Part shown: in pieces, positions 1,560 to 16,970 of the stretch | Numbering within the stretch: the stretch's first letter is position 1 | Layout: each line of letters opens with the position of its first letter | From: Nitrospira japonica | Lineage (GTDB): Bacteria; Nitrospirota; Thermodesulfovibrionia; UBA6902 | Direction: 5' to 3' | Assembly (NCBI GenBank): GCA_020723105.1 | Contig: DYJL01000007.1 | Location: forward strand, 1 to 35,983 | Length of the DNA stretch: 35,983 nucleotides | Notes under the pieces: generated by a model | What the model was told of the DNA's origin: nothing | The model's input: the letters and a program-made list of their open reading frames with translations, nothing else | The model's database searches: none | Program-made: the position numbers and the translations under genes

Positions 1560-3407
1560 TCACCATTGCTTAATCAACTCAACCAGCTTATCAACTGAAC
1601 TGATAACGTTGTTTATAAAACTACTTGCCGACAGTAAGCCATTTGAAGTCATATTAGTTTTAAAACGACCTAAACTCTTCAAGATTGAGTCTTTGTTAGT
1701 ATCACTAAGTATTTCTTTATTTAATTCATTAAAACATTTTCGTAAGATATCTACACCTATAACGGCTTCATGCTGATTAATAATTCCATCAATATCTGCT
1801 AAACAAACAAGCGCCTTATGTTTTTCTGTCCAGTTTTCACCATGTCCAACTACAGCTCCTCGAACCGGAGAGTATAACAAATTTTCTAGAATCACCTTTA
1901 TGTAATGATCAACTGCTGGATGAATAAGATAGTAATTGCTGTCTGGAAGAAAAGTTGATCGTACTTTTCCAGTCGTTTCAAAATGTTGAGAATATGTTAT
2001 GTCCTGCTTCGTCTCATGTCTTGTGACAATCCCTAAGAGCCCAATTCGGTATAGGTCACAGAATATATGATATACTGCATTGCAATCTCGACAATTACCC
2101 CCATGATATGAAATACAAGCATCGAAATGATTATTGTACTTTCTACATATGTCTTGTATTTCTGATTTAGTTAAGATGTTTCGTCTAAAAAACGAGAAAA
2201 ATCTTTCAACATTTGTATATTGAAGAGATGTTGTAAAACGTGCAACCTCTTTCATATACTGCTTCTGAATCTCCTCGCCTGGTATTCTATTGACGCTATC
2301 CCGAAAATTCGTTTCACCAAGGCTGTTTTTCTTAGATAGCCTATGAATTTCCTCACCGAACATTATTAAATCACGTGGACGTCTTAAGGTATGTCTTAGC
2401 ATATATTTAAACGGAGTCTCTTGAATATTGTTCCATACATTTTCCACCTTCTCTAACCCAGTAAATGCTACTATAGGAGAATAAGCATACTTATCTGGGA
2501 GTTTAACTGTTTCAGTGGATTCGTAAGTACGAACAGCGTGTTCAAAAATATTTTCTAAATCTGGTTCTGAATAGGTCAACTCACTTACAATATCGTGATA
2601 TTGGGTATGAAGTTCAGCTATACAAGAGTCCCATGCTTCTTTCCGAACTGAAGCATATATTTTAATTTGCCGATTTGAATTGTGAATCCTAAAAATTGCC
2701 CCTACTATACCATTTTGAGCATTTTTCCATATCTCAAGAGGATACTCGCTTATTCCCTGATCGATCTGGTCAATGAAAACATAAACAGGTCTATCGATAG
2801 ATAAACACCACTGATGAGACCGATCAAGTGCTGAGGGTATGGAACTTTGAATATTTCCAAGAGGTAATGAAAGAATGTTGCTCAATATCGAAGATGGATT
2901 CGCCTGAATTTTATAGTAATCTCTTATGGATTCATTTGCTTTGAGTTTTGAAGTGATTTTTTCAATAAGAACCAATATATTATTGAATTTTATTTTCTCA
3001 TTTTTAAGAATGTCACAGAAATCTGAAAGATACTCAGAATCACGAGATCTAATTGAGTAATGAATAATAATTGAGATAGCTAAAGACAATTGCCAAAGAC
3101 ATTGCCAAGTATCGAATGATGACAAGAAATCAACTAGTTTTCCTTCATAAGGCAATGAATGGTCAAAGTAATCAATATAGGAATTTGCAGGCACTGTTAT
3201 AATCTTCTGTCCTTCATACTTCGACGCAACATTATGATATACGTATTTAAGCAGAAGTGTTTTTCCATATCCTTTGGGAGCAACAATGATAAATCTTGAG
3301 GATTCAATAAACTCACTTACTTTTGGTGTACGTGCAATATATTTTTCAAAATTAAAATTAGAAACATCTATTGTTGCTGCATCAATATACCAAAAATCTT
3401 TCATCAT
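1560..3407 (-). CDS. P-loop ATPase (Sll1717/ORC-like), first gene of a three-gene operon
   Basis: About 615 residues. A Walker A motif APKGYGKT lies at about residues 43-50 and a Walker B-type PVYVFIDQID near residues 207-216, as in STAND/ORC-like ATPases. A Cys/His-rich stretch near residues 420-450 (Cys, then Cys, then CRDC and a further Cys) could bind zinc, and the C-terminal part is probably helical. I chose the ATG at 3,407; an ATG at 3,404 and a TTG at 3,410 are in frame. GGAGGTGA ends just upstream at 3,411, which fits any of them. It is not a helicase: no SF1/SF2 motifs follow. ATPases of this family are often found in accessory regions; a sensor or switch role with the membrane protein encoded downstream is an inference. 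Confidence 0.7.
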   Translation of the reverse strand: MMKDFWYIDAATIDVSNFNFEKYIARTPKVSEFIESSRFIIVAPKGYGKTLLLKYVYHNVASKYEGQKIITVPANSYIDYFDHSLPYEGKLVDFLSSFDTWQCLWQLSLAISIIIHYSIRSRDSEYLSDFCDILKNEKIKFNNILVLIEKITSKLKANESIRDYYKIQANPSSILSNILSLPLGNIQSSIPSALDRSHQWCLSIDRPVYVFIDQIDQGISEYPLEIWKNAQNGIVGAIFRIHNSNRQIKIYASVRKEAWDSCIAELHTQYHDIVSELTYSEPDLENIFEHAVRTYESTETVKLPDKYAYSPIVAFTGLEKVENVWNNIQETPFKYMLRHTLRRPRDLIMFGEEIHRLSKKNSLGETNFRDSVNRIPGEEIQKQYMKEVARFTTSLQYTNVERFFSFFRRNILTKSEIQDICRKYNNHFDACISYHGGNCRDCNAVYHIFCDLYRIGLLGIVTRHETKQDITYSQHFETTGKVRSTFLPDSNYYLIHPAVDHYIKVILENLLYSPVRGAVVGHGENWTEKHKALVCLADIDGIINQHEAVIGVDILRKCFNELNKEILSDTNKDSILKSLGRFKTNMTSNGLLSASSFINNVISSVDKLVELIKQW

Positions 3408-3703
3408 CAATCACCTCCTTTTTTTGCCTGACTATACTAATTCTGTAAAATAAATAACTTAAAATTCTATGTCATTAATGTTATTAATCTCATGGGAACA
3501 ATGGCATTATATTTCACTTTTGTAGTATATTCCCGCCTGATACTAAAACTGAATTATTTTAAACCGAGGTCACAAAAACATCAATAAAAATCTTTTTTAA
3601 AATCTTTTTAAATATCTATCTTGATTTATTTTCCTATCTTTATTTATCCTAAAAATGGCTCTGATATTTATTTCGCTTTTCCAACAATGGAATTTAAAAC
3701 GAG

Positions 3704-4139: not shown

Positions 4140-5744
4140 ATGGAGAAAATAAAGATTGCTATTATTGGCGTTGGCAATTGTACCAGCTCCCTACTCCAGG
4201 GTATTGAATATTACAGGCATAAGGATAGTAGGGAAGCTATCGGTCTTATGCATTGGGATATTGGCGGTTATAAGCCTTTCGATATTGACGTAGTCGCCGC
4301 ATTTGATATTGACAAGAGGAAGGTCGGTAAGGACATTAATGAGGCAATCTTTGCCCTTCCTAATAACGCTAATGTTTTTTGTGGTGATTTGCCGATATCT
4401 GGTGTTAAAGTGCAAATGGGAAAGATATTGGATGGATTTTCTGAACACATGAAAAATTATGACGAGAAACAAACATACATTCTAAGCAATGAAAACGAAG
4501 CATCAAAAGATATAATTGTTAGTGCATTAGTAAAATCCGGAGCTGAGATATTACTGAATCACTTGCCTGCGGGTTCAGTGCAAGCAACACGTTTTTATGC
4601 AGAATGTGCCCTTGAATCTAGAGTGAGTTTTATTAATAATACTTCAGTTTTTATTGCAAGCGATCCTACGTGGGCTGCTAAATTCAAAAGAAGCAATATC
4701 CCAGTCATCGGCGATGACATCAAATCACAGCTTGAAACTTCAATAATCCATAGAATACTTGCAAGTTTCTTTAGAAAAAGGGGTGTAGAAATCGAACGAA
4801 CTTATCAGCTAAATACAGGGGGCAATACTAACTTTCTTAATATGTTATACAAAAACAGGTTTGCATTAAAAAAAGAATTGAAGACCGAAGCAGTGCAGTC
4901 GATCCTGAATATGAACAGACTGGAGGATAAGAACATTCACATCGGGCCAAGCGACTATGTCCCGTGGCAGAAAGACAATAAGATATGTTTTATACGAATA
5001 GAGGGAAGGCTTTTCGGTGATGCCTCGATGAGCCTAGAGCTGCGGCTTTCCGTAGAAGACTCGCCCAATTCTGCTGGTGTCTCTATAGATGTCATTAGAT
5101 GTTGTAAGATAGCACTTAATAGGGGTAAGAGCGGCGGGCTATACCCTCTGTCAGCTTATTTTATGAGACATCCACCAAAGCAGTTTCCTGATGATTTAGC
5201 ATATCGTATGACTGAAGAATTTATTGCAGGCCAAGATATATTATCAGATGATTTAGATAGGATAGAGGTTGACGTACGCATTCCACAAAAAGTTATTAGT
5301 TCAAAAGATATTGACCGTCTTCTTGATGCAATTAATAATTTCATGGAGTCTTGCGGTTTTGAATATGAGGCAGAATTTGAAGTAACTAAGGGGTCTTTTT
5401 ATCAGAAATTACGATTTTTATCTAAAAACCAAAAAACAAGAGACGAAATGGAAGAAATTTATAAAAAAGGAAAGCGAGCTCTTGAGCTGCAGTATTTAGA
5501 TAAACCAACTGCAGAAGCTACAAATGAGCTTACAAACGCTGCTTCGAATTTGATAAATGCTTGTAATTCTTTAGATGAAGTTGTTATAAGACTTGGAGCA
5601 ATTCTGTTGGTAAAAGTAAATATAGATGGAAAGAGTAAGTTAGTTGTCGACACAGTATCCCCCGATGTCATAATTAAACTTGAAAGTGATACTTCCTTAT
5701 ATAACAATCCCTTGAAAGTGTATGAATTATTGAGATCGCGATAA
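4140..5744 (+). CDS. inositol-3-phosphate synthase (Ino1-type) with extra C-terminal domain
   Basis: Residues 1-365 match the short Ino1 family of actinobacteria and archaea. It converts glucose 6-phosphate to inositol 3-phosphate using NAD. The Rossmann loop is GVGNCTSSLLQG, and VVAAFDIDKRKVG, the catalytic-region QLNTGGNTNFLNM, GPSDYVPW and the SPNSAGVSIDVIRC block are all present. Family members are usually about 360-440 residues; this one has 534. The last 165 or so residues contain a basic amphipathic segment and a helical stretch (RALELQYLDKPTAEATNELT) and end in a mixed strand region I cannot name with certainty. GAGGAG lies 8 bases before the ATG. It stands alone between two long gaps in an island of defence-like genes. 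It may make inositol phosphate as a solute or lipid precursor, or the fusion may have a signalling role. The enzyme call is good; the role of the tail is unknown. Confidence 0.8.
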   Translation: MEKIKIAIIGVGNCTSSLLQGIEYYRHKDSREAIGLMHWDIGGYKPFDIDVVAAFDIDKRKVGKDINEAIFALPNNANVFCGDLPISGVKVQMGKILDGFSEHMKNYDEKQTYILSNENEASKDIIVSALVKSGAEILLNHLPAGSVQATRFYAECALESRVSFINNTSVFIASDPTWAAKFKRSNIPVIGDDIKSQLETSIIHRILASFFRKRGVEIERTYQLNTGGNTNFLNMLYKNRFALKKELKTEAVQSILNMNRLEDKNIHIGPSDYVPWQKDNKICFIRIEGRLFGDASMSLELRLSVEDSPNSAGVSIDVIRCCKIALNRGKSGGLYPLSAYFMRHPPKQFPDDLAYRMTEEFIAGQDILSDDLDRIEVDVRIPQKVISSKDIDRLLDAINNFMESCGFEYEAEFEVTKGSFYQKLRFLSKNQKTRDEMEEIYKKGKRALELQYLDKPTAEATNELTNAASNLINACNSLDEVVIRLGAILLVKVNIDGKSKLVVDTVSPDVIIKLESDTSLYNNPLKVYELLRSR

Positions 5745-6149: not shown

Positions 6150-6881
6150 ATGAGCTTAATAGTCCACAGTGGAGGAAATGTTGTAACAAAAGACGACTTA
6201 GCAGCCATTCCAGTCCCGGGGGCCACGGAGAGTTATACCCCTGTCCCTCACAATTATCTGGCAGAGACGCTTTCAACCATAGGCCGGGACATCCTTACCG
6301 GATTCAAGCTCGAAGACGAGCAGTACGCCCTTGCCAGAAATGGCAATCAGATGTTCGGGGTTCTGGCCTTCTCAAACGGTGATACGGAACTTGCCCTGTC
6401 CATCGGTTTCAGAAACTCTTACGACAAGAGCATGGCCGTAGGTATTGCCATCGGCGCGAAGGTGTTTGTCTGTGACAATCTGGCCTTTACGGGGGATATC
6501 ACGGTGTTAAGAAAGCATACCTCAAATGTCTGGTCATCGCTTGAAAATATTTCCATCTCAACGCTCTACCGGAGCCGGAAGAATTTCAACAAGATAGTAG
6601 AAGACGCTGAAGTGCTCAAAGCAAAGACAATGACTGACAAAGAGGCTTTCATGATGCTCGGCCTGCTATACGGAAAGAGAGTTCTCTCTTTAAGGCAACT
6701 GTCATTTGCGAAGCTGGAATGGCTGAATCCTTCGCATGACGACTTCAGATCGCGCGACATGTGGAGCTTCTACAATGCCTGCACTACGGTCTTAAAGACG
6801 TGCCCGCCGATTGTGATTATGGAAAAGCATATTGCGCTTCATAACCTCATTATGGGAGGCCAGAATGCACATAATAATTAA
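6150..6881 (+). CDS. DUF932 family protein
   Basis: 243 residues of the DUF932 type, common on plasmids, phages and integrative elements, of unknown biochemical role. The central block with SIGFRNSYDKSMAVGIAIGA, followed by VFVCDNLAFTGD, is the family's typical core. The C-terminal half is helical. AAAGGAGG and the ATG are well spaced. The next small ORF starts before its stop, so the two are translationally coupled. GC is visibly higher than in the preceding genes, in line with the methyltransferase-helicase unit downstream, with which it shares leader and terminator. Confidence 0.8.
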   Translation: MSLIVHSGGNVVTKDDLAAIPVPGATESYTPVPHNYLAETLSTIGRDILTGFKLEDEQYALARNGNQMFGVLAFSNGDTELALSIGFRNSYDKSMAVGIAIGAKVFVCDNLAFTGDITVLRKHTSNVWSSLENISISTLYRSRKNFNKIVEDAEVLKAKTMTDKEAFMMLGLLYGKRVLSLRQLSFAKLEWLNPSHDDFRSRDMWSFYNACTTVLKTCPPIVIMEKHIALHNLIMGGQNAHNN

Positions 6882-7073: not shown

Positions 7074-8825
7074 CTATGCCAATTTCTTTAATATATCTTT
7101 TAGAATCTTCTTTCTTGCCACTAAAAAAGTCTGAAACTTTGTGAAGTCAAATATTTCCGGGATGAACCGGCGTTCACAGAACTCTTTTTGTGTAATACCC
7201 TTGCTCTTCGATTCTCTCTTAACCCACTCCCAAAGTTCTGCATCTTGCTTTGACTTGTTCTCATTGCCATCCAAAAGCTGTAAATTTAAAATACTGTTGT
7301 AATTTTCAGGGTTAAGATAAAAGTCAAATTGATCCTCTCTAACACCAAAAGATTTGAGCTGCTTTTTTGTAAAAAAAGATTCAGCAAAAATATGGTCCTT
7401 ATGGAAATCCCCATTTCTGTAGTCCAACTGCGGATAAAGAATGGCTAATATAGAAAAGCATAATGGATCATCCTTCTGAGTCAACAATAGATTCTCAATA
7501 TAATCATCATCGAAAGTCATATCCTTTGTAGTACCTTTTAACTCCTTTACTATTAGAGAATGGGGAAATTCAGTTATAGAACTCTTGATCTTCTTCTTCG
7601 CGATATCGTCAGTAAAAACAGTTCTAATTTTGGATAGAATTGCATCAGCTTGCCCGCCAAAAATTCTTTTAATTAGGACAATGTGAAGCCATCTTTTGAT
7701 TATCTCTCTGTCTTTCTCGTAGTTTTTCTTCTTATAAAAATCTGTATAAATATCTTTATGGTATAAGTAATAAGCGATAGGGATAACGGCGTTTTTTGAA
7801 GTAAGAGTTTTATCAGTGAAACCATATGACCTTATTAAATCAAAAGTGCTACTTAACGCTGACTTAATATCATTCCACTTGTTTTCGAAATGCCTTGCAT
7901 TGTCTTTTGAAAAATTGGTTACCTTGAATTTGATGTCACTACTGTAAAGCACTAAGAATGTCTTTAGGATTAAATCCTTCGAAATGAAAAAACCTTTATC
8001 TCTGATTTCATCAATAAGTTGATTGATTTCTTTGCGCGCGTCAAGCTTTGTCCAATTAGCTATTGCTATTGACATTAATAAGTCGGAGAAATTAAGTGGC
8101 TCTCCTCCGCTGTTTATGCGGATAAAAATATTTAGTGCCTTATCTAAATTTTGTTCCTTTTCGAGAAAGTAATTAATAATTCGATCAGTATGAATTGCCT
8201 CTTGAAGCCTGGAGAGTGATTCATAGGTAAATTGATTTGCCTTGTAATTATGCTTATCCAAAAATTTATTGAATTCAAATACGCTCTTTAAATTTAATAT
8301 ATCACCTACCTTAAACCATTTTTCTTTCTCAGAGCTATACTCGCCCTTGGTCAAGAATCTGAAATCGTACATTCTTCCGTCTTCTTCATCCTCTAATCTA
8401 TTTGCAATATTTAAATATAGATGTCTTGTAGGGATACTATGTTCTGTATTTTCCCACCAGCGACGCGGTAATTTATAGGCATAACTACCTTTAAGGCCGA
8501 TGTATATGGAAGCCAGTCTTTGTTGACCGTCCAATACCGCCTTGAAATCGTTTGCGCCGCTCGTATCGAACTCGTCATTATGAGTCTGATACCATTCCCG
8601 AAAGTTCTTTAGAAAGCTATAGAATTTATATTGGTGCTTCGTATTTCCTTCAACCTGCCAAAATAGAAATGAACTAATTGGATAATGACGCATTATAGAA
8701 TCGAATAACCATTCAATTTGAGTATTTATCCACACAAACTCTCTTTGAATTGCAGGCAACAGAAGCCTATTATTATCGATATCTTCTATAGCTGAGGCGA
8801 TGGTTATTGGTGTTTGAAATGACAC
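7074..8825 (-). CDS. DUF262/HNH nuclease, GmrSD-like (type IV restriction type)
   Basis: 583 residues. The N-terminal DUF262 (ParB/Srx-like NTPase) domain has LPAIQREFVW at about 24-33 and the diagnostic DGQQRLASIYIGLKG near residue 98. The C-terminal part has HKDHIFAESFF and a downstream NPENYNSILNLQLLDGNENKSK, the His-Asn-His layout of DUF1524-type nucleases. GmrSD proteins use nucleotide hydrolysis and this nuclease to cut modified (glucosylated hydroxymethylcytosine) phage DNA; others of this architecture have different modification targets. The start is a GTG at 8,825 with GGAGG five bases upstream. It is AT-rich and points away from both flanking higher-GC units, so it looks like inserted defence cargo. 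Confidence 0.85.
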   Translation of the reverse strand: MSFQTPITIASAIEDIDNNRLLLPAIQREFVWINTQIEWLFDSIMRHYPISSFLFWQVEGNTKHQYKFYSFLKNFREWYQTHNDEFDTSGANDFKAVLDGQQRLASIYIGLKGSYAYKLPRRWWENTEHSIPTRHLYLNIANRLEDEEDGRMYDFRFLTKGEYSSEKEKWFKVGDILNLKSVFEFNKFLDKHNYKANQFTYESLSRLQEAIHTDRIINYFLEKEQNLDKALNIFIRINSGGEPLNFSDLLMSIAIANWTKLDARKEINQLIDEIRDKGFFISKDLILKTFLVLYSSDIKFKVTNFSKDNARHFENKWNDIKSALSSTFDLIRSYGFTDKTLTSKNAVIPIAYYLYHKDIYTDFYKKKNYEKDREIIKRWLHIVLIKRIFGGQADAILSKIRTVFTDDIAKKKIKSSITEFPHSLIVKELKGTTKDMTFDDDYIENLLLTQKDDPLCFSILAILYPQLDYRNGDFHKDHIFAESFFTKKQLKSFGVREDQFDFYLNPENYNSILNLQLLDGNENKSKQDAELWEWVKRESKSKGITQKEFCERRFIPEIFDFTKFQTFLVARKKILKDILKKLA

Positions 8826-9088: not shown

Positions 9089-10039
9089 ATGGCAAGACTG
9101 GAATCACAGGCAAAAATGGGATACTACCCCACACCGGAGGTGACATTACAGGAGATAAAAGATAAACTGAATTTTTCCAAAAAAGCAGTTCTGCTTGACC
9201 CCTGCTGCGGCGAGGGCTATGCCTTAAGCGAGATCGCAGACGATGCCGGGGCCACGGCCTTCGGCATTGAACCTGACACGGACAGGGCGATAAAGGCTAC
9301 GGACGTGTTAAGCAGCGTTCTTTGCGGCAGTCTCTTTGATGTCATAGTCCGACCAGTAGATTGTTTCTCCTTACTCTATCTCAATCCTCCCTATGACTGG
9401 CAGGACGGGGAGAGAATGGAATTTCTTTTTCTCAAGCACAGCCATAAATGGCTCATGAACGGAGGGCTCCTCATCTTCATCGTACCCGAGCACGTGCTTG
9501 GGATAACAAAGATCAAGGACTGGATAGCCAGAAGATACGAGGACATTCGTATTTGCAAGGTTACGAAAGAAGACTTTCCGGCCTTCAGGCAGGTTGTCCT
9601 TTTCGGGGTCAAGAAAGAGAACGAGGAAGAGAATTTCCCCAAGCCACCCTATCCGCACATAGAGGATATGGACTTTACGTATAACGTGCCGGAGGGGTCA
9701 CGTCTCAGGATATTCGAGCTTCAGGGGTTAAGGCCGGAAGATATCCACTCATATAGGGCTGTAGCAGAGAAGAATATCATGGAGACGATCTTCGGAGTTG
9801 AAAGCAATGTAGCGGCCCTTTCTCCGCTATTCCCGCTAAGGAAAGGGCATCTGGTCTCACTCCTTATGAGCGGGGTGTTAAACTGCGAGCTTAAAGAGGA
9901 GAAGATAGTCTTCAAATGCTTTACCGAAAGGAGCCGGTCAATCAGGCTTGAGGAGGAAGATGACAAGGAAATCACTACCGATACCTATGTGTCCGGTATC
10001 AGGGTGATAGAGAAAGGGAGGTGGTACGATGTCATGTGA
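9089..10039 (+). CDS. N6-adenine-type DNA methyltransferase (DUF6094-like)
   Basis: 316 residues. S-adenosylmethionine binding is shown by motif I, DPCCGEGYALSEIA, near residue 37, followed by an acidic GIEPD. The catalytic motif NPPY near residues 98-101 marks amino-methylation of adenine (or cytosine N4). The N-terminus, MARLESQAKMGYYPTP, and the layout match DUF6094-type methyltransferases of mobile elements, which lack a clear target-recognition domain. It starts after a strong GGAGG. The next gene begins 11 bases before its stop, so the two are coupled. It probably modifies the element's DNA or acts with the helicase; no partner restriction enzyme is adjacent except the divergent DUF262 gene, whose type cuts modified DNA. 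Confidence 0.8.
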   Translation: MARLESQAKMGYYPTPEVTLQEIKDKLNFSKKAVLLDPCCGEGYALSEIADDAGATAFGIEPDTDRAIKATDVLSSVLCGSLFDVIVRPVDCFSLLYLNPPYDWQDGERMEFLFLKHSHKWLMNGGLLIFIVPEHVLGITKIKDWIARRYEDIRICKVTKEDFPAFRQVVLFGVKKENEEENFPKPPYPHIEDMDFTYNVPEGSRLRIFELQGLRPEDIHSYRAVAEKNIMETIFGVESNVAALSPLFPLRKGHLVSLLMSGVLNCELKEEKIVFKCFTERSRSIRLEEEDDKEITTDTYVSGIRVIEKGRWYDVM

Positions 10040-12989: not shown

Positions 12990-14258
12990 ATGAAAGACAT
13001 TGTTTTTATAAGTCATGCAAATCCGGAAGATAATTATTTTGCATTCTGGCTTTCAAGCAAATTAAAACAAGCAGGCTATAGTGTTTGGGTTGATATAAAC
13101 AATCTAGTAGCTGGGGATTCAACTTGGCCAGAAATAGAAAAGATCATAAGAGAACAAACAATCAGATTTGTAGCTGTAATTTCTAATACTTATATCAACA
13201 AAGCTAAAACGCCTGGGTCAGGTATTAGGAAAGAAATATCGTGTGCGTCTGTAATACAAAATATCCCTAATTTTATGGTACCCGTCAGACTTGACCAAAG
13301 CAAATTCAGTGATTTTAACATTGATATTCTGGAACTATACGCGACTGATTTCAATGATAACTGGAAGCAGGGTCTAACCAAATTACTAAGTGATCTTGAA
13401 GTCTTAAAAACTCCGAAGAGTTCAAATGATTCAGATATACATCAATTCTGGATAAATGCGTTAAAAATTAATCAGGACCCCCTACAGAAAACAGAACAAT
13501 ATCGAACGAATTGGTTCGAGATTTTGCTTCCAAAAAATATTTACATTCATCAACCAACTTTACTTCAAAATACCACTTCTGAACCATCTTATAAATATGT
13601 GAATTATGCCGATAGATTTATTGCCTTTGCATCCGAAGAAATTGTATCAAAATCCATATCATTGCAGTCATCGGTAAAAGTTCCCATTACGTTATTTTCT
13701 TGCTCTAATGAATATAAAATTGACAACACAATTTCAATTAAGCGCCCCAACTATTTATTAGTTCAATTGCTAAATTCAATCTTAAGAAGTGAATTATTGG
13801 GGAGAGGACTATCCGTTTATAAACAAGCAAACAAAAAGGAAGTCTTCCATTTTGATTTTTCTGAGGAACATATTAAACCAGTCAGTTTAAAAAAATTTAA
13901 TAAGGCAAGGAGAACAATTATTGGGCAAATGAAGAATTTTGTCTGGCATTTTGGCATAAGCTATAGTGCGGCTTTGTTTCCAAAGCCTATGTTCAAAATT
14001 TCTTACCATATCATTTTCAAAGATGATAAAGGGAATTATTTATCTAAGGAAGACCAACATTTACTCAGAAGAAATATTGGTTCCGATTGGTATAACAGAA
14101 AATGGCTGGAAACATTATTAGCTATGATGGTAAAAGTATCGAATTCAACTACTGATGATTTCATAGAAATTCCAGTGCATCAAAGTGAAACTCTAAGAAT
14201 AATGATTTCTCCCATTGTCATGCATTCTGATGTTGGATATTCAGAACCTAATGAATAA
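12990..14258 (+). CDS. TIR-APAZ protein, effector subunit of a SPARTA system
   Basis: 422 residues. Residues 1-140 form a TIR domain: VFISHANPED at 5-14, the GYSVWVD strand at 29-35, AGDSTWPEIE at 41-50 (E48, or less likely E50, is the candidate catalytic Glu of NAD-cleaving TIR domains) and VAVISNTYI. Residues 150-422 form the APAZ domain, whose motif-poor helices and strands pair with a short Argonaute; WHFGISYSAALFPKP is in the expected region near its end. In SPARTA, the heterodimer recognises a nucleic-acid target through the Argonaute guide, oligomerises and depletes NAD(P)+. The next gene starts 8 bases before this stop, which ties the two subunits. The ribosome binding site is weak. 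No frameshift is seen, so the system looks intact. Confidence 0.92.
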   Translation: MKDIVFISHANPEDNYFAFWLSSKLKQAGYSVWVDINNLVAGDSTWPEIEKIIREQTIRFVAVISNTYINKAKTPGSGIRKEISCASVIQNIPNFMVPVRLDQSKFSDFNIDILELYATDFNDNWKQGLTKLLSDLEVLKTPKSSNDSDIHQFWINALKINQDPLQKTEQYRTNWFEILLPKNIYIHQPTLLQNTTSEPSYKYVNYADRFIAFASEEIVSKSISLQSSVKVPITLFSCSNEYKIDNTISIKRPNYLLVQLLNSILRSELLGRGLSVYKQANKKEVFHFDFSEEHIKPVSLKKFNKARRTIIGQMKNFVWHFGISYSAALFPKPMFKISYHIIFKDDKGNYLSKEDQHLLRRNIGSDWYNRKWLETLLAMMVKVSNSTTDDFIEIPVHQSETLRIMISPIVMHSDVGYSEPNE

Positions 14259-15810
14259 CAAATTGATATATTTAAATGAACCTAAGTTAATTTTTGGTTA
14301 TAATCAAAAAACGATTGACCCACGGGACGGCTTAACCTTATTTGGCCCGTATGAATCTCTGGCTCCTTTTAGTGTAAAAGCTGGCGTAGTAGCTACAAGT
14401 AATGGCTTTGAGGCGTACAAATATTTTGTAGAAAGAGTCAATAAGCCTATTATATCCACAAAAAAAGTATATGGAAAAATTAAAATCGATGAAATTAGCA
14501 GGCCTAGCTTTCCTGGTTTTGAAGCAATTTTTAATATAAGCTGGCCAACTACGCCTGAAATTTACAAAGAATTAGACTCGTCTAAACTCAACACATTACT
14601 GAAAGAGAAAAAGAAGAAAAAAAGAATCTTAAAAGTTGTTGACTATTATCTACAAAAAATTTTAGAGGCAACAAAAAAGGAAGATACTCAAGTCAATATC
14701 TGGTTCATAATAGTACCTCGGAATCTATACTCCAGATGCAGGCCAGGCTCATGGGGATCGGAAGTAAGCAGAGAAGTCAGACAGTTTCTAGATTTGACAA
14801 GAGCAGGTCAACAGTTATTTAATTTTTTGCTGGAAGACGAAGAATTCCAAGATGATTTAAAAAACGAATATGATTCGAGGGAAGACTTTCATCACGTTCT
14901 TAAGGCTCGCCTTATTCAGGAAAAAATTACAATTCCGGTTCAGCTTATTGTAGAGTCAACACTGTATTTCAGAGATAAGAAATACAATAAAGAATTAGAT
15001 GAGAATATCAAAGCACATCTGGCTTGGACACAATCAACAACGTTGTACTATAAACTCGGCAAGTTGCCTTGGAAATTAGGCGATATCAGGGATGGTGTTT
15101 GTTATTTGGGCTTAGTTTTTAAGAAATTAAAAACTCCCGCGCAGAAGGGAAATGTATGCAGTGCAGCTCAAATGTTTTTGAAAGACGGTGACGGCTCCGT
15201 GTTTAGAGGTAATATTGGGGCTTGGGAATCAAAGAGCTTAAAAGAATTTCACTTAGACGAAAAAGCTTCTTGCGAACTATTAACATTGGCTTTAGATGAT
15301 TATTTTGAAAAATGGAATAAATATCCTAATGAACTGTTTATTCATGGCCGGGCAAAGTTTTCCGAAGAGGAATGGACAGGCTTCAAAAAGGCGATTGAGG
15401 GGAAAAAGGCCGCGACAGAACTAACTGGAGTCGTAATAAAAGAGAGTTCTAATTTTAAAATATTTCGAGACATTGAACATGAGTCGAGCAATTATGGAGT
15501 ATTGCGTGGCCTTGCATTTCAAATCTCTGATAGAGAGGCATACTTGATGACAAGAGGTTTTATACCAAGATTAAATACGAGTTCTAGTATTGAGGTACCA
15601 AATTCCCTGCACATTCAGATCACAAGAGGAACTTCTGATATGGGTAAGGTCTTAAATGATGTTTTGGCTTTGACTAAATTGAATTACAATGCTTGCATCT
15701 TCGGCGACGGAGTGCCGGTCACACTTCGTTTTTCGGATTTGATTGGAAATATTCTGACTGCTACAGAAAACTGGAAAGTGGATATTAGGCAATTCAGATT
15801 CTATATTTAG
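14251..15810 (+). CDS. short prokaryotic Argonaute (MID-PIWI), SPARTA guide-binding subunit
   Basis: 519 residues with the short-pAgo architecture (no N or PAZ domain). The N-terminus NEPKLIFGYNQKTIDPRDGL and the AHLAWTQSTTLYYKLG block near residues 253-268 are typical of this family. The PIWI fold continues with CYLGLVFKKL near residue 283 and LFIHGRAKFSEEEW near residue 363. The aspartates of the nuclease tetrad are missing at both places (YLGLV instead of a Gly-x-Asp motif; HGRA instead of HRDG), so it should bind guide and target but not slice. The ATG at 14,251 was chosen because it gives the family N-terminus and overlaps the TIR-APAZ stop by 8 bases; a TTG 36 bases upstream is unlikely. 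It works with the preceding TIR-APAZ protein. Confidence 0.94.
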   Translation: MNNKLIYLNEPKLIFGYNQKTIDPRDGLTLFGPYESLAPFSVKAGVVATSNGFEAYKYFVERVNKPIISTKKVYGKIKIDEISRPSFPGFEAIFNISWPTTPEIYKELDSSKLNTLLKEKKKKKRILKVVDYYLQKILEATKKEDTQVNIWFIIVPRNLYSRCRPGSWGSEVSREVRQFLDLTRAGQQLFNFLLEDEEFQDDLKNEYDSREDFHHVLKARLIQEKITIPVQLIVESTLYFRDKKYNKELDENIKAHLAWTQSTTLYYKLGKLPWKLGDIRDGVCYLGLVFKKLKTPAQKGNVCSAAQMFLKDGDGSVFRGNIGAWESKSLKEFHLDEKASCELLTLALDDYFEKWNKYPNELFIHGRAKFSEEEWTGFKKAIEGKKAATELTGVVIKESSNFKIFRDIEHESSNYGVLRGLAFQISDREAYLMTRGFIPRLNTSSSIEVPNSLHIQITRGTSDMGKVLNDVLALTKLNYNACIFGDGVPVTLRFSDLIGNILTATENWKVDIRQFRFYI

Positions 15811-15874: not shown

Positions 15875-16195
15875 ATGAGTATCAAGAAGCAATATAAAAA
15901 GAAGTTGTTCAAAAAGGGCTCTTCTCCGTGCAAGGTTACTTTCAGCTTGCCCGAGGAAATGATTAATCCCGCCAAGACAGTTTATCTGGTCGGTGAGTTT
16001 AATAATTGGGATGTCGAGGCCACTCCCATGAAAAAGAAAAAAGACGGGACATATTCCGTTACCATTGAGCTTGAAGCTCAAAAGGAATACCAGTTCCGCT
16101 ACCTTATTGATTCCGATAGATGGGAGAATGACGGGGAGGCCGACAAGTATGCCGCGACTCCTTACAGTAGCGAAAACTCGGTGGTAGTGGTTTAA
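15875..16195 (+). CDS. small CBM48 (isoamylase early-set / AMPK-beta-like) protein
   Basis: 106 residues. After a basic N-terminus (KKQYKKKLFKKG), residues 20-106 form one carbohydrate-binding module 48: VTFSLPEE, VYLVGEFNNWDVEATPM near 40, the GTYSVTIEL strand, and YQFRYLIDSDRWENDGEADKY. The Trp and Phe positions of the glycogen-binding face are kept. Such stand-alone modules bind alpha-glucans such as glycogen and may regulate or target partners. AGAGAGGGGG precedes the ATG. It lies just inside the island by the tRNA remnant and may be either cargo or a native gene; it has no evident link to SPARTA. Confidence 0.85.
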   Translation: MSIKKQYKKKLFKKGSSPCKVTFSLPEEMINPAKTVYLVGEFNNWDVEATPMKKKKDGTYSVTIELEAQKEYQFRYLIDSDRWENDGEADKYAATPYSSENSVVVV

Positions 16196-16253: not shown

Positions 16254-16417
16254 AAAAACATGATTCAACTGTAGAAGAATTGTAGCAGATTGCGTCAAAA
16301 AGGGCGGAATTTACAGGAAAGCACAGGAACAGACAGTATCTGAAAAACTCATTTTATTTAAATAGTTATTAAAATATTCAGGCCAGAGGCCGGTTTGCAA
16401 TTTTACCCCCTTTGGAC

Positions 16418-16460
16418 TTCCTAAACCTGGTGCCGCAGGTTCGATCCCTGCAGGGGGCGC
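16418..16460 (+). tRNA. 3' half of a tRNA-Arg(CCU), attachment-site remnant
   Basis: The order is anticodon loop TTCCTAA (anticodon CCT at 16,420-16,422), 3' anticodon stem ACCTG, 5-base variable loop, T-stem GCAGG, loop TTCGATC, CCTGC, acceptor strand AGGGGGC and discriminator G. No matching 5' anticodon stem, D-arm or correct 5' acceptor precedes it, so it is not a working gene. Tyrosine recombinases often recombine in this part of a tRNA, leaving exactly such a fragment at the far end of an island. The rest of 16,196-16,574 holds the hairpin at 16,232 and otherwise nothing I recognise. Confidence 0.8.
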
Positions 16461-16574
16461 TTTTCCCACTCTGTAATTATTTCCATTGAAACCTGTTTTT
16501 TGTTTATGTATCATATGTCAGTATTTGCAAACCACATAAATATATGCTATATCATTTTTAAATAGGGAGAGCTT

Positions 16575-16970
16575 ATGGAAAACTTTTTCTGGGGAGTTAT
16601 TGCAGGTGGATTGATTATATTGGCAGCTTTCTTAATTCCTGCCATTTTGCAGATTAAAAGGACTGCAAAGGCTGCCGAAGATTTTCTTCAGACTACACAG
16701 GATTCGCTCAATCCTCTTTTGAGAAGGCTTCAGGAAACAGTTGAAAAGACAAATCAGATTACTGCGAAACTGGATGAGTCTATCAGCAACATGCAGCAGT
16801 TATCAAAGGCTGTAGGAGAAACCGGAGAAATAATTAGTGACATAAATAGTTTAGTCAGAAAGATTCAGATGTTTTTTACTGTTACAACTTCAAGTTTTGG
16901 AGCAGGCATAAAAACAGCCCTGAGTGTCCTGACACAGGGGGCTATTCAAAAAATAACCTCACAGAAGTGA
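16575..16970 (+). CDS. DUF948 family membrane-anchored coiled-coil protein
   Basis: 131 residues. A single N-terminal hydrophobic segment (about residues 5-27) is followed by a long helical, heptad-like region (TAKAAEDFLQTTQDSLNPLL onward) typical of DUF948 proteins, whose function is not known. GGGAGAG precedes the ATG. It is paired with a YtxH gene 70 bases downstream, a frequent neighbourhood of small envelope or stress proteins. It is the first gene on the chromosomal side of the tRNA remnant. Confidence 0.8.
   Translation: MENFFWGVIAGGLIILAAFLIPAILQIKRTAKAAEDFLQTTQDSLNPLLRRLQETVEKTNQITAKLDESISNMQQLSKAVGETGEIISDINSLVRKIQMFFTVTTSSFGAGIKTALSVLTQGAIQKITSQK

What the first reader, a model, noticed from the sequence alone, without database searches (positions are those of the whole stretch)
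16418..16460. tRNA-Arg(CCU) 3' fragment marks the island's right end
The fragment begins exactly at the anticodon loop, lacks a 5' half and separates accessory from core genes. This gives a boundary and predicts that the intact tRNA lies to the left of the window on the plus strand, with an identical 3' half.
Basis: partly seen in the sequence, partly recalled or inferred. Interest (0 to 1): 0.62.

Follow-up and report, generated by a model that had tools for sequence, protein, structure and literature searches.

The report
Right end of tRNA-Arg integrated defence island
A 42-base leftover piece of an arginine tRNA gene marks where a mobile DNA island carrying anti-phage (Argonaute) genes ends in a Nitrospirota bacterium; this is a textbook integration scar, confirmed here, with an unusually well-documented insertion hotspot behind it.

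Summary
Confirmed. Window 16418-16459 is exactly nucleotides 33-74 of tRNA-Arg(CCU). It starts on the first base of the anticodon loop and has no 5' half. The genome holds exactly one other copy, an intact tRNA-Arg(CCU) on contig C25 (53237-53310, +). The shared repeat is 48 bp without mismatch (16418-16465). A 375-aa tyrosine integrase lies directly 3' of the intact gene. The integrase arm motif occurs inside both ends, in the window at 16269-16288, at the same distance from the fragment (-116) as in two cousin elements of another genome. Integrase relatives in other Nitrospirota lie beside the same tRNA. A genus-mate (G005) has intact tRNA, short insert, 3' fragment and then the same right-hand core gene on one contig; that insertion looks independent. 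The fragment is therefore attR of an integrated island of about 41 kb plus a gap. Cargo includes SPARTA (TIR-APAZ plus short Argonaute) and a GmrSD-like gene. The window begins at a contig end, so physical linkage is inferred; no clean empty site was found. It is a new member of a known kind. Side finding: mirror-image junctions that leave the tRNA 5' half, with a homologous arm.

The parts
16418..16459 (+). Displaced 3' part (nt 33-74) of tRNA-Arg(CCU); host side of attR
   Evidence: identical to C25:53269-53310, only two places in the genome; starts at first base of anticodon loop
16418..16465 (+). 48-bp direct repeat shared by attL (C25:53269-53316) and attR
   Evidence: exact extension
16269..16288 (+). 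Putative integrase arm-type site CTGTAGAAGAATTGTAGCAG, partner of CTGTAGCAAAATTGTAGCAG beside the intact tRNA
   Evidence: only match within 2-3 mismatches in window, L033, L034 besides the C25 copy; same offset (-116) as in G040 elements
16256..16417 (+). Inner arm region of attR, alignable without gaps to attR arms of two cousin elements in G040
   Evidence: alignment; BLAST hits
16379..16391 (+). CAGGCCAGAGGCC, conserved GC-rich near-palindrome in the arm
   Evidence: identical in G040 C12 and C45 attR
12990..14258 (+). TIR-APAZ protein of SPARTA
   Evidence: Pfam TIR_2; PADLOC Aga_TIR-PNTD1-PNTD2 E 3e-99; PDB SPARTA chains E ~1e-48
14215..15810 (+). Short prokaryotic Argonaute of SPARTA
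   Evidence: PADLOC pAgo_I E 2e-177; PDB short pAgo chains E 1e-123 to 1e-128
7074..8825 (-). GmrSD-N / HEC-05 candidate defence protein
9089..10039 (+). DUF6094 methyltransferase; second copy at C57 of the same genome
10654..12840 (+). SNF2-type helicase
6150..6881 (+). DUF932 protein; 70% identical homologue lies on the same contig as the integrase/VirD4-like/orf599 block in G258
4140..5744 (+). Inositol-3-phosphate synthase-like protein, island cargo
1560..3410 (-). Sll1717-family P-loop ATPase, island cargo
15875..16195 (+). CBM48 (glycogen-binding) protein, last island gene
16575..16970 (+). DUF948-like core gene, first gene right of the island
   Evidence: conserved with YtxH and BadF-type genes in relatives; directly right of the 3' fragment also in G005

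Best explanation
The fragment is attR, the right end of an integrated genomic island. Shown: a tyrosine integrase gene lies directly 3' of an intact tRNA-Arg(CCU); a 48-bp repeat links that gene to the window fragment; and similar arm-type sites lie inside both ends. Inferred: the integrase recombined attP (which carries the anticodon loop and 3' half) with the tRNA gene by strand exchange in the 7-base anticodon loop, flanked by the palindromic anticodon stem CAGGTTT-CCT-AAACCTG. The incoming 3' half restored the tRNA at the left end, and the host's own 3' half was pushed to the right end, where it is now a non-functional scar. The island spans at least 24.5 kb on C25 and 16.4 kb on C82, plus an unsequenced gap near an insertion-sequence copy. 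It carries SPARTA and other likely defence genes, so it would move anti-phage immunity between Nitrospirota.
For: Exact 42/48-bp match, two copies only. Integrase adjacent and antisense-overlapping the tRNA, with its stop in the anticodon loop. Arm motif in both ends, with the window copy at -116 exactly as in two G040 elements. Whole cousin element in G040 C12: intact tRNA, 57% identical integrase, phage-like genes, 3' fragment. Integrase relatives at 86, 57, 54, 43 and 41% identity lie beside intact tRNA-Arg(CCU). G005 has intact tRNA, insert, fragment and the same right-hand gene on one contig. Left flank HisI-YraN-tRNA-Pro-tRNA-Arg is conserved in G019 and, interrupted, in others. G258 has homologues of both the C25 block and the window's DUF932 on one contig, in the same order and orientation. 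SPARTA is supported.
Against: No contig spans from the intact tRNA to the window, and the contig ends do not overlap. No genus member shows a clean empty site; in most, tRNA-Arg and the DUF948 gene are on different contigs. The closest relative, G008, has no detectable tRNA-Arg(CCU) at either flank. Excision or transfer was not tested, and no relaxase or secretion apparatus was identified among the C25 genes scanned. The right cut point is exact, but the C25 and C82 cargo could in principle belong to two elements.
Confidence: 0.93

Rival explanations
1. The fragment is an old scar of an earlier insertion, and the present island arrived later by another route (tandem insertion or replacement of cargo).
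For: The site is a hotspot with repeated insertions (G005, G038, G040). Islands at such sites turn over: two alternative elements share both outer flanks in G040.
Against: The fragment is identical to the tRNA over 48 bp, the inner arm is intact and at the standard offset, and an intact integrase lies beside the tRNA. Only one fragment and one intact tRNA exist, so no extra att site of a tandem array is visible.
Confidence: 0.12
2. C25 and C82 carry halves of two different elements that happen to use the same tRNA, not one island.
For: Assembly gap; C25 ends in a repeat shared with C1 and C86; C82 starts with unique sequence.
Against: Only one intact tRNA and one fragment in a genome rated 100% complete. 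The arms of the two ends carry the same motif. G258 has homologues of both halves in the same order on one contig.
Confidence: 0.08
3. A decayed tRNA duplicate or chance match with no link to integration.
For: None beyond the lack of a spanning contig.
Against: Exact match, truncation at the anticodon loop, integrase, arm sites and independent parallels.
Confidence: 0.01

Closest known systems
Islander-type genomic islands with anticodon-loop ('A') crossover and displaced 3' tDNA fragment (PMC4383910)
   Same: Regenerated tRNA at one end, 3' fragment in the same orientation at the other, integrase by the tRNA, crossover in the anticodon loop. Islander lists 3760 islands with 3' fragments and 2083 anticodon-centred sites.
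   Different: Only the host phylum and cargo, and the draft assembly, which stops full mapping of the island.
SPARTA short Argonaute/TIR-APAZ defence systems (PMC11156904, PMC10474274)
   Same: Two-gene operon, TIR-APAZ followed by short pAgo, matching solved SPARTA chains over full length.
   Different: Divergent sequence; found in few Nitrospirota (9 of 296 genomes sampled have any pAgo match); here placed inside a tRNA-integrated island.
Tyrosine integrases whose gene runs into the att site (Mx8 and SSV cited in PMC4383910)
   Same: The integrase reading frame extends across the tRNA 3' half.
   Different: The stop codon lies inside the shared 48-bp core, so integration does not alter the protein, unlike split 'suicidal' archaeal integrases (PMC8371274).

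Membership tests
tRNA-integrated genomic island (Islander definition) | intact tRNA plus cognate fragment in the same genome | tested here: met
tRNA-integrated genomic island (Islander definition) | fragment is a tRNA end fragment, same orientation, on the correct side | tested here: inconclusive
   3' end fragment met; relative orientation and side across contigs C25/C82 inferred from flanks and from G005, not read through
tRNA-integrated genomic island (Islander definition) | tyrosine integrase gene in the island | tested here: met
   Pfam Phage_integrase E 4e-37 directly 3' of the intact tRNA
tRNA-integrated genomic island (Islander definition) | island length 2-200 kb on one replicon | tested here: inconclusive
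   at least 40.9 kb on two contigs; gap unknown
tRNA-integrated genomic island (Islander definition) | empty site in relatives | tested here: inconclusive
   no clean empty site; G005 has an apparently independent short insertion
SPARTA | short pAgo (MID-PIWI) encoded beside TIR-APAZ | tested here: met
SPARTA | NAD(P)ase activity triggered by guide RNA/target DNA | not testable with these tools
   needs biochemistry
Integrative and conjugative element | relaxase and type IV secretion genes | tested here: inconclusive
   only a VirD4/TraD-like ATPase (weak TraD hit) among the C25 genes scanned; gap not sequenced

The most novel reading that the evidence does not exclude
One integrase family uses the palindromic anticodon stem-loop of tRNA-Arg(CCU) in both orientations. 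Besides junctions that displace the 3' half (as here), relatives carry mirror-image junctions in which a homologous arm is joined to the tRNA 5' half (G001, G005, G020). Elements of one family would thus have switched which half of the tRNA they carry.
Probability: 0.35. Interest if true: 0.45.

Novelty: new member of a known kind. Interest (0 to 1): 0.3.

Why it matters
It gives a precise right boundary for a Nitrospirota island that carries an Argonaute-based defence system. It also identifies tRNA-Arg(CCU) as a repeated landing site in this phylum and supplies the integrase, core repeat and arm sites needed to test excision and transfer. The mechanism itself is well known.

Tried and rejected
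ARAGORN and Rfam on the window: no complete tRNA or other RNA family. Direct overlap of the C25 end and C82 start: none. Joining through repeats: the C25 end is a 55-bp repeat shared with C1 and C86, while the C82 start is unique. Clean empty site next to DUF948: not found in 30 relatives' loci. Direct repeats bounding the G258 element: none found. Viral contigs with a close integrase: only weak matches, 24-34% identity. A self-inverted element as the source of the 5'-half junctions: considered; the palindrome of 3' halves it predicts was not seen, so a 5'-half-carrying class is preferred. An assumption that L140 is the same stretch as G014 C22 (equal contig length) was checked over the overlap and not supported.

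Full report
Observation. Window 16418-16459 reads TTCCTAAACCTGGTGCCGCAGGTTCGATCCCTGCAGGGGGCG. It equals nucleotides 33-74 of a tRNA-Arg(CCU) and begins on the first base of the 7-base anticodon loop (TTCCTAA). No complete tRNA exists in the window. In the whole 3.13-Mb genome this sequence occurs twice with up to 3 mismatches, both exact: here and in an intact tRNA-Arg(CCU) at C25:53237-53310, plus strand. The shared stretch is 48 bp (16418-16465) and stops abruptly on both sides.

The other end. Directly 3' of the intact tRNA, on the opposite strand, is a 375-aa tyrosine integrase (Pfam E 4e-37). Its reading frame runs antisense through the tRNA 3' half and stops at a TAG formed by the antisense of the anticodon loop. 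Because that stop lies inside the 48-bp core, integration does not change the protein. Left of the tRNA are core genes HisI, YraN and tRNA-Pro(CGG). This order with tRNA-Arg directly following is kept in G019 and G000, and with inserts or truncation in G001, G002, G038 and G045.

Arm sites. CTGTAGCAAAATTGTAGCAG lies beside the intact tRNA. The window has CTGTAGAAGAATTGTAGCAG at 16269-16288. These were the only matches with up to 3 mismatches in the window and C25 stretches searched, and the only ones with up to 2 in about 0.2 Mb of this genome, counting overlapping copies once. Relative to tRNA position 1, the attR copy sits at -116 in the window and at the same -116 in both G040 elements; the attL copies sit at +125 to +137. 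The window's 160 bp inside the fragment align without gaps to both G040 attR arms, including an identical CAGGCCAGAGGCC.

Relatives. G040 contig C12 is a whole cousin element: intact tRNA at 50-123, 57% identical integrase, phage-like genes, 3' fragment at 14570-14614. Contig C45 of the same genome has a different 2.8-kb insert between the same outer flanks, so two alternative occupants of one site seem to have been assembled. Integrase relatives with 86, 57, 54, 43 and 41% identity lie beside intact tRNA-Arg(CCU); other relatives lie beside other tRNAs. In G005, one contig carries intact tRNA-Arg, a 1.35-kb insert whose left end resembles the C25 attL, a 3' fragment cut at the same base, and then the DUF948 gene that also follows the fragment in the window. 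The G005 fragment shares its own tRNA's T-stem variant (CTGG/CCAG), not that of G000, so the two insertions look independent (sequences; inference).

Linkage. The window starts at base 1 of contig C82. C25 ends in a 55-bp repeat also found on C1 and C86; the start of C1 reads like an insertion-sequence transposase by inspection. No overlap joins C25 to C82. Indirect support for one island: a single intact tRNA and single fragment, matching arms, and G258 contig C9, where homologues of the C25 block (integrase, VirD4-like protein, orf599) and of the window's DUF932 gene (70% identity) lie on one contig in the same order and orientation.

Cargo. The window part carries a SPARTA pair, TIR-APAZ at 12990-14258 and short pAgo at 14215-15810. 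It matches PADLOC models and the full length of solved SPARTA chains. It also carries a GmrSD/HEC-05 protein, a DUF6094 methyltransferase with an SNF2 helicase, an Sll1717-type ATPase, an inositol-3-phosphate synthase-like protein and a CBM48 protein. The C25 part carries a VirD4/TraD-like ATPase, a RuvC nuclease, radical SAM/B12 enzymes, an AAT-family protein and a serine recombinase. G+C is 38.6% and 37.4% in the two island parts against 42.0% and 42.6% in their core flanks.

Mechanism. Established knowledge (PMC4383910, PMC8371274) and the anatomy agree on site-specific integration at the anticodon loop with regeneration of the tRNA by the element's 3' half. Shown: repeat, integrase, arms, parallels. 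Inferred: strand exchange itself, one contiguous island, present mobility, and defence function.

Mirror-image junctions. G001, G005 and G020 also carry tRNA 5' halves (nt 1-40 or 1-43) joined at the anticodon loop to an arm homologous to the reverse complement of the window arm (for G005, 71% over 136 bp, E 8e-13), with the arm motif at +170 to +183. G002 and G040 have 5' halves whose arm was not recognised. Islander lists 159 islands with 5' fragments among 3919, so the class is known. What may be new is one arm family seen with both halves; a complete 5'-half element with its integrase at this tRNA was not found.

Verdict. It is an ordinary, well-understood kind of feature, with useful cargo and unusually clear comparative support.

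Noticed in passing
L106 9134-9173 (-), L228 13784-13823 (-), L229 11637-11679 (+): tRNA-Arg(CCU) 5' halves joined at the anticodon loop to an arm homologous to the window's attR arm, in mirror-image orientation.
   Followed up: partly
L226 1-14735 and L096 5583-8477: Two alternative elements (14.4 kb phage-like and 2.8 kb) share the same outer flanks at tRNA-Arg(CCU) in genome G040, suggesting strain variation at the hotspot.
   Followed up: partly
G008 (L114, L123): The closest relative, rated 99% complete, shows no tRNA-Arg(CCU) at either expected flank and no full match in the genome search.
   Followed up: no
L034 4251-11488: Island part on C25 holds an operon of two radical SAM/B12 proteins, an AAT-family protein, a D-2-hydroxyacid dehydrogenase and an ATP-grasp-like protein, perhaps a small-molecule pathway.
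   Followed up: no
window 9089-10039; G000:C57:129244-130227: The DUF6094 methyltransferase has a 58% identical second copy elsewhere in the genome, possibly in another island.
   Followed up: no
L261 4877-9035: In G095 a 56% identical VirD4-like gene and an integrase lie beside tRNA-Glu(TTC): the same module at another tRNA.
   Followed up: partly
window 4140-5744: Inositol-3-phosphate synthase-like protein with a long C-terminal extension among defence genes; role unclear.
   Followed up: no
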